From a virus: DNA of 24,480 bases. The notes beneath the pieces were generated by a model. It had not been told where the DNA came from and did not search any database. It worked only from the letters and a program-made list of their open reading frames with translations. The position numbers and the translations under genes were made by a program. The DNA is taken from the IMG/VR virus record IMGVR_UViG_3300047550_000285, positions 1 through 24,480 of that record; one strand, written 5' to 3'. Of the stretch, positions 1,124-8,712 are shown piece after piece; positions within the stretch are counted from its first letter, which is position 1, and every line of letters begins with the position of its first letter.

Positions 1124-1393
1124 GTGGCTAGAAAATTTCCTGATTTAAATGATGATGGTGAAATAACCCAAGCCGACGTGCTTATGGGTAAAGGCGTCAT
1201 TGGTAAGAAAAAAGGTGGAAGCGTTAAATGGATTCAGTCAGCTATCAAAAAGCCAGGCGCTTTACGAAGCTCGCTTGGTGCAAAGAAAGGGGAAAAGATC
1301 CCTACAAAAAAGCTCGCAGCCGCAGCCAAAAAGCCGGGCAAGTTAGGCCAGAGAGCGCGGCTCGCCCAGACGTTGTCAAAGTTGAAAAAGTAA
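1124..1393 (+). CDS. Small basic phage protein with an EF-hand/dockerin-type calcium loop
   Basis: An 89-residue protein with a GTG start two bases after the fibre stop and an AAAGGAG ribosome site inside the fibre end. Residues 7-18 read DLNDDGEITQAD, which fits the dockerin/EF-hand calcium loop (D-x-N-x-D-G-x-I-x-x-x-D). The remainder is very basic, with Lys/Ala/Pro-rich sequence and repeated KKPG (residues 43-46 and 70-73), ending ARLAQTLSKLKK. I recall similar small basic proteins from aquatic phage genomes but know no established function. Placement between fibre and lysis genes suggests late expression. A second frame through this gene encodes a C-terminal transmembrane peptide (see 1228-1467). 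A structural, DNA-associated or lysis-linked role is possible; none is shown. Confidence 0.75.
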   Translation: MARKFPDLNDDGEITQADVLMGKGVIGKKKGGSVKWIQSAIKKPGALRSSLGAKKGEKIPTKKLAAAAKKPGKLGQRARLAQTLSKLKK

Positions 1394-1467
1394 CCCCGAC
1401 TTTTGGGCTATTGCTTTTTGGGGTGTCTCTGATATGTTCCTTGCTAATAGTCGCATGGAGGCAGTAG
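1228..1467 (+). CDS. Candidate overlapping or frameshifted peptide with C-terminal transmembrane segment
   Basis: In the -1 frame relative to the 89-residue gene, an open frame runs from ATG 1228 to TAG 1465-1467 and ends with a hydrophobic helix (FGLLLFGVSLICSLLIVAW) just after the 0-frame stop. Two routes could express it. One is a -1 frameshift at A AAA AAG (1306-1312), giving a 114-residue fusion of residues 1-63 with 51 new residues. The other is internal initiation at ATG 1228 behind AGGTGG (1213-1218), giving 79 residues, basic then transmembrane. Its stop abuts the next ATG (TAGATG), and its coding sequence fills an otherwise empty 74-base gap in a tightly packed genome. It sits directly upstream of lysis genes. 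Overlap with a real gene means it could be chance, so confidence is moderate to low. Confidence 0.35.
   Translation: MDSVSYQKARRFTKLAWCKERGKDPYKKARSRSQKAGQVRPESAARPDVVKVEKVTPTFGLLLFGVSLICSLLIVAWRQ
1306..1312 (+). other. Candidate -1 slippery heptamer A AAA AAG
   Basis: In the 0 frame this reads ACA AAA AAG, the X XXY YYZ form and the same heptamer used in E. coli dnaX. An SD-like AAAGGGG at 1286-1292 lies 13 bases upstream, close to the spacing of the stimulatory SD in dnaX. I see only weak downstream pairing (GAGC-GCG-GCTC near 1350), which is farther away than usual stimulators. Other AAA AAG pairs in the gene are preceded by C or G and do not make full heptamers. Confidence 0.4.
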
Positions 1468-1926
1468 ATGGCCCAGTTGCCAGATCCTACCGACCCATCC
1501 AAGGTCGTTCAGACTGCTTTAGGTGGAATCCGCGAGGCGATCAAAGCCGGACGGGACATCAAAGAGACAGCCAAAGAAGTCAATGCTTTTCTGGACGAGG
1601 AAGCTCGCGCCCGGGTAGCGTGGAGAAGAAAACAACAGGAAGTTCAGCGTCGGGGCGACATGATGTATATCGACGCCATCAACGAGTATCGGGTGCTGTA
1701 CAACCTGAAGAAAAACAAGGAAGACGCCTTCAGGCAGATTGAGAAAGAGTTTGGTAAAAGGGCAATACAGGAAGTTGAAGCATTAGAAGTCAGGCTTCGG
1801 AAGGAGCGCAAGGAGTTGCAAAAGGAGTACGACTCCGACCGACAGGCAACACGGAATGAGTGGTTAGTGCTGGGGGCTTTGGCTTTACTGGTTTACGGGA
1901 TACTTAAAGCGACAAAGGTGTGGTGA
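1468..1926 (+). CDS. Coiled-coil protein with C-terminal membrane anchor, lysis-region
   Basis: A 152-residue protein with ATG 1468 behind GGAGG (1456-1460). Residues about 20-125 are strongly helical and charged, rich in Lys, Glu, Arg and Gln, and look coiled-coil. Residues about 131-147 form one hydrophobic helix (WLVLGALALLVYGILKA), followed by a short KVW tail. This layout predicts a tail-anchored membrane protein with a large N-terminal cytoplasmic rod. It is immediately upstream of, and overlaps by one base (TGATG), the holin gene, so it belongs to the same translational unit as holin and endolysin. Its topology is opposite to a normal i-spanin (N-terminal anchor), and it has no lipobox. 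I do not recognise a named family; holin regulator, spanin analogue or virion-associated membrane protein are all open. Confidence 0.75.
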   Translation: MAQLPDPTDPSKVVQTALGGIREAIKAGRDIKETAKEVNAFLDEEARARVAWRRKQQEVQRRGDMMYIDAINEYRVLYNLKKNKEDAFRQIEKEFGKRAIQEVEALEVRLRKERKELQKEYDSDRQATRNEWLVLGALALLVYGILKATKVW

Positions 1927-2408
1927 TGATTACTTTACTTTCTACATTAGTTTCATTCCTGATGGGCGGCCTGCCCAAGGTGCTGGATTTCTTCCAAGAT
2001 CGGTCAGATAAGGCCCATGAGCTGGAGCTTGCCAAGATGCAGACGGAGCGGGAGCTTCAGATGCTGGAGAGAGGCTTTGCCGCCCAAGCCCGGGTTGAGG
2101 AGATCCGAACTGATCAGGTGGCTATGCAGACCGCCGTTCAGGAGCGCCAGGCACTCTACGCCCACGACATCGAGATCGGCAAAGGTGCCTCTCAGTGGGT
2201 GATCAATATGCGGGCTTCTGTCCGTCCGGTCATTACCTACGGCATGTTCTCAATGCTTTTATTTGTAAACATCTTTGGGTTCTTTTACGCCTGGAAAACT
2301 GGGGTGCCGTTTGACCAAGCCATGTCCATTCTGTGGGATGAGGATTCGGCCATCATCTTTTCAAGCGTGATCGCGTTTTGGTTCGGTAGCCAGTCCTTTA
2401 AGAAATGA
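1926..2408 (+). CDS. Holin of the GTA/3-TM type (putative)
   Basis: 160 residues from ATG 1926, which overlaps the previous stop (TGATG) and has AAAGG at 1914-1918; the GTG at 1920 is in frame but poorly placed. Hydrophobic segments lie at about 3-22, 101-121 and 138-155, with a charged helical rod at 24-85 between the first two. The R100-P101 pair at the start of the second helix and the C-terminal FGSQSFKK resemble the three-TM holin family of gene transfer agents and phages, from memory. It would form the inner-membrane lesion that releases the downstream endolysin, which lacks an export signal. It is coupled to the endolysin gene by an ATGA overlap. Assignment is by topology plus position; sequence identity to a characterised holin cannot be verified here. 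Confidence 0.7.
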   Translation: MITLLSTLVSFLMGGLPKVLDFFQDRSDKAHELELAKMQTERELQMLERGFAAQARVEEIRTDQVAMQTAVQERQALYAHDIEIGKGASQWVINMRASVRPVITYGMFSMLLFVNIFGFFYAWKTGVPFDQAMSILWDEDSAIIFSSVIAFWFGSQSFKK

Positions 2409-2911
2409 AAACGTCCGAGGTGGGCATCCACGTAATGCATCAGTTTGAAGGGTATCGTGACCGGCCCTATTTATGTCCTGCGTCAATATGGACTGTGGGC
2501 TGGGGCGAAGTGCTGCATCAGGAACAAATTCGCCTGCCAGTGATTCGCAAAGAAGGCTATACCGGAATGATCAGAAAGGAGTTCCCCCTTGCACCAGAGC
2601 ATAACCGTCAATGGTCAAAGTCAGAGCTGGAGGAGCGCTTCAAGAATCTCCTCGTCAGTTTTGAGCGTGGTGTTCTTCGACTTGCCCCTAATTTATCTGG
2701 GCGTCAAGGCTTGTTTGACGCTTGTGTCGCTCTTAGCTACAACATCGGTGTAGGGGGTTTTCAGAGGTCTACCCTTCGTCAGCGGATACTCAGGGATGAG
2801 CCGTTGGAAAGTATTGCTCAGGGGTTTATGATGTACGTAAATCCGGGTAGTGCTTTTGAAAAGGGATTGACGCGCCGCCGCAAAGCTGAAATTGCCTTAT
2901 TTATGAGCTAA
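2405..2911 (+). CDS. Endolysin, GH24 lysozyme (muramidase)
   Basis: A 168-residue lysozyme of the T4/P22 GH24 class that cleaves the MurNAc-GlcNAc bond of peptidoglycan. The catalytic region is E15-(8)-C24-(5)-T30, embedded in FEGYRDRPYLCPASIWTVGW. This is the E-8-D/C-5-T triad in which Cys replaces the Asp of T4 lysozyme, as in several phage endolysins. The later SYNIGVGGFQRSTL (about residues 114-127) matches the conserved N-x-G-x-G-F-x-x-S-T-L segment, and the TRRRKAEIALF end is also typical. The N-terminus is hydrophilic, so it is neither a signal peptide nor a SAR anchor, and release should depend on the holin. ATG 2405 overlaps the holin stop. Length is normal for the family. Confidence 0.93.
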   Translation: MKTSEVGIHVMHQFEGYRDRPYLCPASIWTVGWGEVLHQEQIRLPVIRKEGYTGMIRKEFPLAPEHNRQWSKSELEERFKNLLVSFERGVLRLAPNLSGRQGLFDACVALSYNIGVGGFQRSTLRQRILRDEPLESIAQGFMMYVNPGSAFEKGLTRRRKAEIALFMS

Positions 2912-2913
2912 TC

Positions 2914-5448
2914 ATGCCTTTACAGAAACTACAATTTCGTCCCGGTATAAACAGAGAAGGTACCAATTACTCGAACGAGGGTGGCTGGTACGACTGCGAC
3001 AAAGTTCGCTTCCGTTCAGGTTTTCCACAAAAACTAGGTGGCTGGATTCGTGCTACCGGTGAGTTCACTTACGAAGGTGTCTGCCGGATGATGATTAACT
3101 GGTCAGACCTATCAAACAATAATTTGCTTGGTATTGGCACCCATCTTAAGTATTACATTAATAATGGTCTTACCGAGTATCACAACATAACACCACTTCG
3201 TAAAACTACTAATCCGATGAGTAACAACCCGTTTTCTGCAACAAACGGGTCTACTACAGTTATGGTCACTGACACCACTCACGGCGCACAGCTTGGTGAC
3301 TACGTAACTTTTTCTGGCGCTACCACTTTTGCAGGTATTCCAGCATCCGAATTAAATACTGAACACAAAATAATTAATATTGTTGGCACAAATACATATG
3401 AGATTGAAGTAGACACGGCAGCAACTTCTACGGCATCAGGTGGCGGTGCTTCTGTTGTTGCCAAGTACCAACTTAATATTGGGCTACCTGCTTACACAAT
3501 TGGTAACGGTTTTGGCGCCGGTGCATGGAATGGCACTAACACTACCGCAACGGCAACTCTTGCCTATACGTCTGGATCAGGAAACGTACTTTTAGATGCT
3601 TTATCTGCATTAGCTATTAATGTAGATAGCACCGCTTCTTTTAGTGCATCTGGAATTATACAAATCAACAGTGAAATAATTACTTACTCAGGGAAAACAG
3701 CTACATCTTTTACTGGGTGTACGCGCGGGGTTCAAAACGATATTGTTTTTGCGTCTACTACCTTAAACGGTGGTATTAACGCTTCTGTTACAACAATCAC
3801 GCTAACTAGTGTTACTGGATTTACGGTACCGGTTATTGGTGCAGCAATTGTTCGGGTTGATAATGAATTAATTTCTTATACTGGTGTAGATAGCGTAAAT
3901 AATCAGTTAACAGGTTGTGTTCGTGGAACTAACGGAACTACAGCAGCTACGCATCTTACCGGTGCAACTATTGCTGAGTACGCAGGAATACAACATTCAT
4001 TAGATCCTACAACTGGATCTGCAATACCACCATCAATTACTGTATATCAAGTACTGCCTGAGTTTCTTCCCGCAACTGGAACAACTGGCTGGGGGGACGC
4101 TTTTGATACTGCCTTTGGTGCCGGTGTTGGTCAGCAGATGCGGTTGTGGAGTAATGATACGTACGGACAAGATTTATTAATTAGCCCGCGCGGCGGTGAT
4201 ATTTACTATTGGAATACGCTTACCCAATTACCAACTTTTACTCCTGCAATAACGCTTCAAGAAGCTGCAGTTGCCGAAGGATATGTCACGCAAGCTCCAT
4301 ACATTCCTAATGCTACAAATCAAGTAGTTGTATCAGACGTATCCCGGTTTGTTATTGCTATGGGCGCTAATCCATATGAGGCTGGCAACCCCGGCACTGA
4401 CTTTGATCCTCTTTTAGTACGGTGGTCAGACCAAGAAAATTTATACGATTGGGTTCCCGAAACAACTAATCAGGCAGGAGACACCCGATTAACTAACGGT
4501 TCGTACATTATGACGAGCAGAAAGACTCGTCAGGAAATCTTAATTTGGACAGATGCTGCTATCTATTCCATGCAGTATCTTGGTCCCCCGTACACATTTG
4601 GCTTTACGCTTTTGATGGACAACCTATCCATTATGTCTCCTGGGGCTGCAACAGTAGTTAATAACGTGGCCTACTGGATGGGTACAGACAAGTTCTATAC
4701 TTATACGGGTCGAGTTGAAACACTACCTTGCTCGGTGCGTCAATATATTTTTAACGATTTAGACTTTGACCAACGATTCCAAGTTATTTCGGGATCTAAC
4801 GAAGGTTATAACGAAGTTTGGTGGTACTACGTATCTGTTACAGAAGCTGCCGCTGCTACTGAAGAGAGTCGTCCACCACTTGCAGATAAATACGTGGTTT
4901 ACAACCACCTTGAGCGCATTTGGTATTACGGCACACTAAGCCGTACATTCTGGTTGGATACCCCCTTGCAAAACACTCCGATGTCGGCATTTGGAGACGT
5001 AGAGTTAGGCACATTGCTTTTTCAAGAAAGGGGAGTCGATGATGCTTCCACTGCAACCCCCGTACCTTTCACTGCTTATATTCAGTCCTCTGATTTTGAC
5101 ATCAGCGATGGACACAATTTTGGATTCGTATGGCGCATTATTCCTGACATTACTTTTGCTGGGTCTGGAGGTAATGCAGGTAATGTTTACCCTTCGGTAA
5201 CTATGGAGGTGCGACCCCGCACATTTCCAGGTACTTCGTATGGCCCAACCGATGTAGATACTGTAACGTCAGTACAACCATATAATTCAGTAATTAAGCA
5301 GTACACAATTGAAGAGTTCACGCCACAGGTCTACACCCGAATCCGTGGACGGCAGATTGCCTTTAAGATTAGTTCACAAGATCAGCTAGGTGTTACTTGG
5401 CAGCTAGGTAGTCCTCGTATTGACATTCGCCCGGACGGACGCAGGTAA
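2914..5448 (+). CDS. Large tail protein, nozzle/stabilisation-type (putative)
   Basis: An 844-residue beta-rich protein starting two bases after the endolysin stop, with no strong ribosome site. The N-terminus (FRPGINREGTNYSNEGGWYD, then CDKVRFRSG and GGW) resembles podovirus proteins annotated as packaged-DNA stabilisation or tail-tube proteins (P22 gp10 and T7 gp12 class, beta-propeller nozzles), from memory. Residues about 229-278 and 288-359 contain two copies of a Thr/Gly-rich module of the form GF...G.I.I..E.I.YTG...FTGC.RG, also present in the next gene. The C-terminal half has many Trp/Tyr strands (WSDQENLYDW, YWMGTDKFYTYTG, WYYGTLSRTFW) consistent with propeller blades. It probably closes the tail channel and positions fibres. 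It overlaps the next gene by one base (TAATG). Confidence 0.7.
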   Translation: MPLQKLQFRPGINREGTNYSNEGGWYDCDKVRFRSGFPQKLGGWIRATGEFTYEGVCRMMINWSDLSNNNLLGIGTHLKYYINNGLTEYHNITPLRKTTNPMSNNPFSATNGSTTVMVTDTTHGAQLGDYVTFSGATTFAGIPASELNTEHKIINIVGTNTYEIEVDTAATSTASGGGASVVAKYQLNIGLPAYTIGNGFGAGAWNGTNTTATATLAYTSGSGNVLLDALSALAINVDSTASFSASGIIQINSEIITYSGKTATSFTGCTRGVQNDIVFASTTLNGGINASVTTITLTSVTGFTVPVIGAAIVRVDNELISYTGVDSVNNQLTGCVRGTNGTTAATHLTGATIAEYAGIQHSLDPTTGSAIPPSITVYQVLPEFLPATGTTGWGDAFDTAFGAGVGQQMRLWSNDTYGQDLLISPRGGDIYYWNTLTQLPTFTPAITLQEAAVAEGYVTQAPYIPNATNQVVVSDVSRFVIAMGANPYEAGNPGTDFDPLLVRWSDQENLYDWVPETTNQAGDTRLTNGSYIMTSRKTRQEILIWTDAAIYSMQYLGPPYTFGFTLLMDNLSIMSPGAATVVNNVAYWMGTDKFYTYTGRVETLPCSVRQYIFNDLDFDQRFQVISGSNEGYNEVWWYYVSVTEAAAATEESRPPLADKYVVYNHLERIWYYGTLSRTFWLDTPLQNTPMSAFGDVELGTLLFQERGVDDASTATPVPFTAYIQSSDFDISDGHNFGFVWRIIPDITFAGSGGNAGNVYPSVTMEVRPRTFPGTSYGPTDVDTVTSVQPYNSVIKQYTIEEFTPQVYTRIRGRQIAFKISSQDQLGVTWQLGSPRIDIRPDGRR
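3598..3990 (+). repeat. Two tandem copies of a beta module in the nozzle-like protein
   Basis: Two divergent copies (about 3598-3745 and 3775-3990) encode GF/SF...G.I.I.sE.I.Y(S/T)G...FTGC.RG units. A third copy is in the next gene at about 5665-5880. The similarity is at protein level; DNA identity is low. Confidence 0.6.
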
Positions 5449-7392: not shown

Positions 7393-7500
7393 ATGAAATA
7401 CAATCATTTTTCGATGCTGCCCGAGCGGGCGTTTCAAAAGCGTCCTTTTGGGGGCATGACTTTAGAAGGCGGTATTTTTGGCGGTGGCGGCGGTGGTGGG
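7393..7500 (+). repeat. Leader repeat copy A
   Basis: The first 45 bases match the first 45 of copy B (8618-8662) at 38 positions. Five of the seven differences are synonymous, so the peptide M(K/R)YNHFSMLPE.AFQ appears selected. Both copies continue into GMTLEGG and a poly-Gly run. Confidence 0.7.
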
Positions 7501-8193: not shown

Positions 8194-8621
8194 ATTTAGT
8201 CATTCGGCCAGTTGAAGTTAATTATGTATCGCAAGTTTGGCCGCGTGTAGAGTCGTTTTTAAATGATGCGTTAGTTAAAGATAGCGATGTACCTGACTGG
8301 AGTGATTGCTACAACATTCATCATGTTCAGGGATTTATAACTAGCGGGCAGTGGCTTTTATTAGTAGCGGTTGACGATAACAACGAAATACATGGTGCTG
8401 CAACTGTGACGTTTTCAAATTACCCAATGAACCGTGTAGCGTTTGTTACTTTGATTGGAGGACACTTAGTGTCTAGCCCTGAAACATTTGAGCAGTTACG
8501 TAATTTATTAAAAAGCTATGGCGCCACCAAGCTACAGGGTTACGGGCGCCCCGCCATAGTTCGGCTTTGGAAACGGTATGGATTTGAACCACGCACTACT
8601 TTAGTGGAAGTGAAATTATGA
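8190..8621 (+). CDS. GNAT-like acetyltransferase-fold protein
   Basis: 143 residues, coupled by ATGA overlaps at both ends. The pattern is that of a GNAT fold: helical start (SQVWPRVESFLNDAL), strand WLLLVAVDD, strand GAATVTFSNYP, strand RVAFVTLIGG, then FEQLRNLLKSYGATKLQGYG and a closing RLWKRYGFEPRTTLVEV, where the YGF followed by a strand is the usual GNAT end. The acetyl-CoA loop (Q/R-x-x-G-x-G/A) is not obvious: the segment after the fourth strand reads GGHLVSS, so catalysis is uncertain. GNAT-like proteins of this size sit among internal virion genes in podoviruses, and T7 gp13 has been compared to this fold. It could be an ejected modifier of host proteins or an assembly factor that has lost activity. 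Confidence 0.6.
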   Translation: MNLVIRPVEVNYVSQVWPRVESFLNDALVKDSDVPDWSDCYNIHHVQGFITSGQWLLLVAVDDNNEIHGAATVTFSNYPMNRVAFVTLIGGHLVSSPETFEQLRNLLKSYGATKLQGYGRPAIVRLWKRYGFEPRTTLVEVKL

Positions 8622-8712
8622 GATACAACCATTTTTCTATGTTGCCCGAGCAGGCATTTCAGCCACGTAATGGTCGGTTAGGTATGACCTTAGAAGGGGG
8701 TGGCGGTGGTGG
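8618..8712 (+). repeat. Leader repeat copy B
   Basis: Direct-repeat partner of 7393-7500. The two copies flank the DUF4214 protein body and the GNAT-like gene (about 1.2 kb) and are both in frame at gene starts. Confidence 0.7.

What the first reader, a model, noticed from the sequence alone, without database searches (positions are those of the whole stretch)
1228..1467. Hidden transmembrane peptide in the lysis region, via -1 frameshift or internal start
The -1 frame of the 89-residue gene stays open past its stop and ends in a clean hydrophobic helix, with its TAG touching the next ATG. The gene holds one perfect A AAA AAG (1306-1312) with an SD-like AAAGGGG 13 bases upstream, similar to the dnaX arrangement. 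Alternatively, ATG 1228 behind AGGTGG gives a 79-residue basic-then-transmembrane protein with the architecture of small single-gene lysis peptides such as MS2 L. It directly precedes a holin and endolysin. Frameshifting would give two forms of the calcium-loop protein: soluble (89 residues) and membrane-anchored (114 residues).
Basis: partly seen in the sequence, partly recalled or inferred. Interest (0 to 1): 0.7.

Follow-up and report, generated by a model that had tools for sequence, protein, structure and literature searches.

The report
Frameshift-made membrane anchor in phage gene
A small phage gene next to the cell-lysis genes carries a conserved ribosome-slippage signal that most likely makes some copies of its protein switch reading frame and gain a membrane anchor, so one gene gives a soluble and a membrane-bound form.

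Summary
The 89-residue gene (1124-1393) belongs to a phage family with over 500 IMG/VR relatives; most lack a hydrophobic -1 frame. A subset of 10 distinct sequences (about 20 contigs) has a transmembrane tail there, next to the same downstream gene. All 10 carry in-phase A AAA AAG at the same two lysine codons. Among 62 unselected relatives with those lysines but no tail, 1 does. A scan on tail DNA alone found 11 contigs; all 11 have the heptamer. Across tailed genes only 6 of 53 third codon positions are invariant: three are the heptamer's, the rest lie in or beside a predicted downstream stem. Two tailed lineages (L342, L128/L127) have a -1 stop before the heptamer and no ATG/GTG/TTG between it and the hydrophobic core, so internal initiation cannot be the shared mechanism. 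In the window's lineage the tail was rebuilt from a neighbouring 25-codon membrane micro-ORF. Best explanation: dnaX-type programmed -1 frameshifting giving an 89-residue soluble and a 114-residue membrane-anchored form. The anchored form's function, including any lysis role, is inferred. Nothing was measured.

The parts
1124..1393 (+). 0-frame gene, 89 aa; EF-hand/dockerin-like N-terminus then basic KWIQ...KKPG...RARLAQTL core (phrog_20603 / phrog_15706, unknown function)
1286..1292 (+). Shine-Dalgarno-like AAAGGGG, 13 nt upstream of the heptamer; candidate frameshift stimulator (published range for -1 shifts 9-14 nt)
1306..1312 (+). slippery heptamer A AAA AAG, in phase with the 0 frame
1318..1326 (+). 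predicted stem, 5' arm (AGCCGC-A-GC), 5 nt after the heptamer
1355..1362 (+). predicted stem, 3' arm (GCGCGGCT)
1312..1467 (+). -1 frame extension read after the shift (51 residues and TAG); linker plus transmembrane tail
1402..1458 (+). transmembrane segment FGLLLFGVSLICSLLIVAW in the -1 frame; pN/pS 0.49 in this frame, 0.99 and 1.35 in the others
1228..1230 (+). ATG at the Lys-Trp codons, with AGGTGG 1213-1218; possible but not required internal start
1468..1926 (+). 152-aa gene, charged with a C-terminal hydrophobic segment; marker of the same neighbourhood in relatives
1920..2408 (+). 162-aa membrane-type protein (phrog_6637, unknown function), holin candidate by position only
2405..2911 (+). 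168-aa endolysin (Phage_lysozyme PF00959)

Best explanation
The gene at 1124-1393 is decoded in two ways. Most ribosomes read through to TAA 1393 and make an 89-residue basic, soluble protein. A fraction slip back one base at A AAA AAG (1306-1312), probably helped by the SD-like AAAGGGG 13 nt upstream and a stem starting 5 nt downstream, and go on in the -1 frame to TAG 1467, making a 114-residue protein with the same first 63 residues, a new linker and one C-terminal transmembrane helix. The result is a soluble and a membrane-anchored form of the same basic domain in a fixed ratio, the anchored form with its domain most likely in the cytoplasm. Shown here: the conserved heptamer, the open frame, selection on the tail, and the absence of another shared route to the tail. 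Inferred: slippage itself, its efficiency, the use of SD and stem, topology, and that the anchored form works at the inner membrane around lysis, in concert with the neighbouring membrane proteins and endolysin.
For: 10 of 10 distinct tailed genes have the in-phase A AAA AAG; 1 of 62 unselected untailed genes with the same Lys-Lys does. A scan by tail DNA alone found 11 contigs; all 11 are also on the heptamer list. Only 6 of 53 third positions are invariant among the 10 tailed genes; three are the heptamer's wobble bases (hypergeometric about 8.5e-4, my arithmetic, ignoring relatedness), kept although the residue before it is Ala, Thr or Val; two of the other three are in paired stem columns and one is the bulged A in the 5' arm. 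L342 and L128/L127 have a -1 stop 24 and 39 nt before the heptamer and no ATG/GTG/TTG before the hydrophobic core; the L128 sequence is in two metagenomes. Stem: 7.5 of 8 pairs in tailed genes against 4.3 in 141 untailed and 5.1 in 24 untailed heptamer genes. SD-like pairing is stronger in tailed genes, -7.0 against -5.2 kcal/mol. The tail evolves under constraint in the -1 frame only. The anchor was kept although its sequence source changed: L140/L128 have their own tail plus a separate micro-ORF, the window clade has a tail made from that micro-ORF's DNA. A AAA AAG is the natural dnaX site and far more shift-prone in E. coli than the related heptamers it was compared with; SD spacing for -1 shifts is 9-14 nt (PMC5009743).
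Against: No frameshifting was measured, and the host and its lysine tRNA set are unknown. The tailed genes are partly one lineage: on a tree without the heptamer columns supported branches force only two changes of the trait and a single origin is not rejected (p-AU 0.134), so counts are not independent events. The stem has no compensatory changes and is not the lowest-energy fold in L005, L140 and L128. About 20 relatives have the heptamer with no tail, so the heptamer alone predicts nothing. The -1 linker between heptamer and tail is poorly conserved in sequence.
Confidence: 0.82

Rival explanations
1. Internal initiation at ATG 1228 (behind AGGTGG) makes a separate 79-residue basic-then-transmembrane protein, like small lysis peptides such as MS2 L.
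For: ATG or GTG is present in all tailed members and the -1 frame is open from it to the heptamer in 8 of 10; plausible SD in the window.
Against: The ATG/GTG follows from the conserved Lys-Trp codons and is common in untailed relatives (85 of 103). L342 and L128/L127 have a -1 stop after it and no standard start before the hydrophobic core. It does not explain the invariant heptamer.
Confidence: 0.07
2. The tail is translated alone as an 18-residue peptide from TTG 1411, the remnant of the 25-codon micro-ORF that relatives have at this spot.
For: DNA homology of the tail to the micro-ORF; TTG and its surroundings are invariant in the window clade.
Against: No such start exists upstream of the core in L128/L127, whose tail is a different sequence next to an intact micro-ORF; no SD at a usable distance; does not explain the heptamer or the open -1 linker.
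Confidence: 0.05
3. RNA polymerase slips on the A6 run, so that altered transcripts rather than shifted ribosomes give the fusion.
For: The shift site is an A run, and a changed run length could put the tail in frame.
Against: Bacterial slippage is described for runs of about 9 A or T (PMC5009743); here there are six. The conserved final G and the predicted downstream stem fit tandem tRNA slippage.
Confidence: 0.03
4. The open -1 frame is fortuitous: a decaying micro-ORF fused by deletion to a frame that happens to be open.
For: The tail DNA of the window clade does descend from the micro-ORF with frame change; the untailed family has no such extension.
Against: The tail evolves with pN/pS 0.49 in this frame only; tail without heptamer was never found; L140 and L128 have different hydrophobic tails in the same frame.
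Confidence: 0.03

Closest known systems
E. coli dnaX programmed -1 frameshift
   Same: A AAA AAG, SD-like element upstream, stem a few bases downstream.
   Different: In dnaX the shift leads to a quick stop and a shorter protein; here it adds 51 residues with a membrane anchor, in an unrelated phage gene.
Lambda gpG/gpGT and SPP1 17.5/17.5* tail assembly chaperones
   Same: Phage -1 frameshift that gives a second form with another C-terminus in a set ratio.
   Different: Different genes, slippery sites and role; no membrane segment (own knowledge); tail module rather than beside the endolysin.
IS3/IS911-type transposase frameshifts
   Same: A-rich slippery sites with SD and structural stimulators (own knowledge; PMC5009743 for stimulators).
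   Different: Product is a fused transposase; nothing else shared.
XhlA-type holin partners (PBSX XhlA, SPP1 gp24.1)
   Same: Small protein with one C-terminal transmembrane helix beside an endolysin (PMC6316719); several relatives carry small one-helix proteins in this same slot.
   Different: No sequence family match for the window protein; made by normal initiation, not frameshift.
MS2 L lysis protein
   Same: Basic segment followed by one transmembrane helix, overlapping another gene in another frame (own knowledge).
   Different: No homology found; expressed from its own start coupled to coat translation; lysis activity untested here.

Membership tests
dnaX-type programmed -1 frameshift site | In-phase slippery heptamer A AAA AAG inside the 0-frame gene | tested here: met
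dnaX-type programmed -1 frameshift site | Heptamer conserved wherever the -1 extension is present | tested here: met
   10/10 distinct sequences; 11/11 contigs found by tail DNA
dnaX-type programmed -1 frameshift site | SD-like element 9-14 nt upstream | tested here: met
   AAAGGGG at 13 nt; stronger pairing on average in tailed than untailed genes; range from PMC5009743
dnaX-type programmed -1 frameshift site | Stimulatory stem-loop a few nt downstream | tested here: inconclusive
   Predicted and enriched in tailed genes but no compensatory changes and not the best fold in three members
dnaX-type programmed -1 frameshift site | Measured frameshift product | not testable with these tools
   needs reporter, profiling or mass spectrometry
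MS2 L-type single-gene lysis peptide | Own translation start for the overlapping frame | tested here: not met
   A candidate start exists in the window but no usable start in L342 and L128/L127
MS2 L-type single-gene lysis peptide | Lysis on expression without endolysin | not testable with these tools
   needs expression
Haemolysin XhlA / known holin families | Sequence match to Pfam or PHROG lysis family | tested here: not met
   79-residue -1 ORF: 0 families in Pfam and PHROGs
phrog_20603 / phrog_15706 (0-frame protein) | Sequence match over the core | tested here: met
   E 0.00045 and 0.00062, residues 35-89 and 35-62; weak
EF-hand / dockerin calcium-loop proteins | Match above curated cut-off | tested here: not met
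   Dockerin_1 E 0.059, 14 bits against 22.9; the motif is absent in tailed members L140 and L128

The most novel reading that the evidence does not exclude
A previously undescribed use of programmed frameshifting in a phage lysis region: the slippage rate sets how much of a small basic protein becomes anchored in the inner membrane, where it acts with the neighbouring membrane proteins to trigger or time lysis, and evolution has swapped the anchor's sequence while keeping the frameshift.
Probability: 0.3. Interest if true: 0.8.

Novelty: new variant of a known kind. Interest (0 to 1): 0.6.

Why it matters
Recoding in tailed phages is known mainly from tail assembly chaperones and a few structural genes. 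This adds a candidate in a different gene, beside the endolysin, whose outcome is a change of cell location (soluble to membrane-anchored). The site is compact, the heptamer differs between tailed and untailed relatives, and a simple reporter would settle it. It also gives a traceable case of a separate membrane micro-ORF being captured by a frameshift product.

Tried and rejected
Internal start at ATG 1228 as the shared mechanism: rejected on L342 and L128/L127. Heptamer as sufficient sign: rejected, about 20 heptamer genes have no tail. Other slippery sites in the overlap (C AAA AAG near 1327, G AAA AAG at 1384): not conserved in the tailed genes. Three further -1 hits with hydrophobic extensions (L117, L195, L285) were set aside because the hydrophobic part is a separate gene with its own ATG. 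Covariation in the stem: none. Structure prediction of the 0-frame protein: mean pLDDT 60, all-helical, too poor for fold comparison. PDB sequence search: only weak dockerin-like hits. Relatives in bacterial genomes via the 152-aa gene: none. The tail in isolated phages: none; the nearest isolate with the 0-frame gene is Pelagibacter phage HTVC027P, without tail. Phylogeny-corrected test: too few independent pairs for significance. Paper searches found no description of this case, in an open-access library only.

Full report
What is there. The window is a 24,480-base virus record, a tailed phage whose structural protein at 2914-5448 has distant relatives in Pseudomonas, Caulobacter, Roseobacter and Pelagibacter phages. 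After a tail-fibre gene with an S74 chaperone end comes an 89-codon gene (1124-1393), then genes of 152, 162 and 168 codons, the last a clear endolysin.

The family. Its conserved part is a basic core of about 55 residues, KWIQ..IKKPGALR..LG.K.G..IPAKKLAAAAKKPGKLGQRARLAQTL. The EF-hand-like start is optional: tailed members L140 and L128 begin directly at MAEKWI. Function is unknown in PHROGs.

The tail. Most relatives have no hydrophobic -1 frame; in 50 of 62 unselected untailed genes with Lys-Lys at the site the -1 frame stops before the 0-frame stop. Ten distinct sequences on about 20 contigs carry a hydrophobic tail of 22-24 codons past the 0-frame stop in the -1 frame, next to the same 152-aa gene (in L128 and L140 a micro-ORF lies between). 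Eight share the FGLLLFG-type tail of the window; L140 (VAPEFGAWFLAAAVLAAVLIMVT) and L128 (SRNIFLFGAAVIAAALIILVL) have different sequences. In the eight, the tail shows pN/pS 0.49 in the -1 frame against 0.99 and 1.35 in the other frames.

The heptamer. All ten have A AAA AAG at the same two lysine codons; of 62 unselected untailed genes with those lysines, one has it. The tail was found without reference to the heptamer for nine of these. A scan of the whole collection for tail DNA found 11 contigs, and all 11 are in the independent heptamer list. The reverse does not hold: about 20 other relatives have the heptamer without a hydrophobic -1 frame, so the heptamer arises by chance in the family but is always kept where the tail exists. 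Among the ten tailed genes nearly all third codon positions vary; 6 of 53 do not. Three are the heptamer's, with Ala, Thr and Val all tolerated before it so long as the codon ends in A. Drawing those three among six by chance has a probability near 8.5e-4; this is my arithmetic and ignores relatedness.

Stimulators. AAAGGGG lies 13 nt upstream in the window; others have AGCGGAGAG or AAGGA in the same stretch, and predicted pairing with the anti-SD is stronger on average in tailed genes (-7.0 against -5.2 kcal/mol). The published range for -1 stimulation is 9-14 nt (PMC5009743). Five bases after the heptamer starts a stem, AGCCGC-A-GC with GCGCGGCT; tailed genes form 7.5 of its 8 pairs on average, untailed 4.3, untailed heptamer genes 5.1. 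It has no compensatory change, and L005, L140 and L128 fold differently by energy, so it is suggestive only.

Why not an internal start. ATG or GTG at 1228 comes from Lys-Trp (AAA or AAG, TGG) and is present in 85 of 103 untailed genes. In L342 a -1 TAA stands 24 nt before the heptamer, in L128/L127 39 nt before, and between these stops and the hydrophobic core there is no ATG, GTG or TTG. The L128 sequence occurs in two separate metagenomes, which argues against an assembly error. For these two lineages slippage from the 0 frame is the only standard route; the same route serves all ten.

How the tail arose. In many relatives a 25-codon membrane micro-ORF, typically MGFWAFTFIGILLxLIALSLFxWSL, sits directly before the 152-aa gene. 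L140 and L128 have both a frameshift tail and this micro-ORF. In the window's lineage the micro-ORF has lost its ATG and five bases, and its DNA now forms the tail, first half in a new frame. The likely history is that a deletion removed the older tail and joined the frame to the micro-ORF; the direction is inferred. A frameshifted membrane end survived a change in sequence source, which points to selection for anchoring as such. L108 has a similar basic-plus-helix protein (TPQFGVWLVIAAVAALIIAVVVS end) as an ordinary separate gene.

Mechanism and function. I conclude dnaX-type programmed -1 frameshifting, giving 89- and 114-residue forms. By composition the helix is a C-terminal anchor with basic residues before it, so the core most likely stays in the cytoplasm (inference). 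A part in lysis is suggested only by neighbours and by the one-helix proteins that fill the same slot in relatives; their families give no lysis match except weak Rz-like hits for one.

Limits. The tailed genes are related; supported branches force only two changes of the trait and one origin is not excluded. The collection scans were capped. No expression data were available.

Noticed in passing
L108, L110, L112, L114, L117, L118, L125, L128, L130, L140, L289, L300, L302 just before the 152-aa gene: A conserved 25-codon micro-ORF (M/V-GFWAFTFxGxLLxLIALSLFxWSL) with one transmembrane helix, its stop touching or near the next start; perhaps a real micropeptide or coupling leader.
   Followed up: partly
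slot between the tail-fibre or KWIQ-family gene and the 152-aa gene in L105, L110, L119, L123, L146: The slot is filled by alternative small proteins: C-terminal one-helix (MEESVETKLAVHEAVC...), N-terminal one-helix plus charged segment (phrog_462, weak Rz-like for L146), or a zinc-ribbon-like protein.
   Followed up: partly
L315, L316, L319, L322, L333, L347, L356 and others: Family genes with A AAA AAG at the same codons but a -1 stop within about 7-11 codons; a shift would truncate the protein, as in dnaX gamma. Chance or use not tested.
   Followed up: no
window 1408-1421 and the same place in seven relatives: CTATTGCTTTTTGG is invariant at DNA level, synonymous positions included, across the window-type tails including the divergent L342; a second signal beyond the peptide is possible.
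   Followed up: no
window 7393-7480 and 8618-8705: Two nearby genes share their first about 28 residues (M[KR]YNHFSMLPE[RQ]AFQ...GMTLEGG), a duplicated N-terminus.
   Followed up: no
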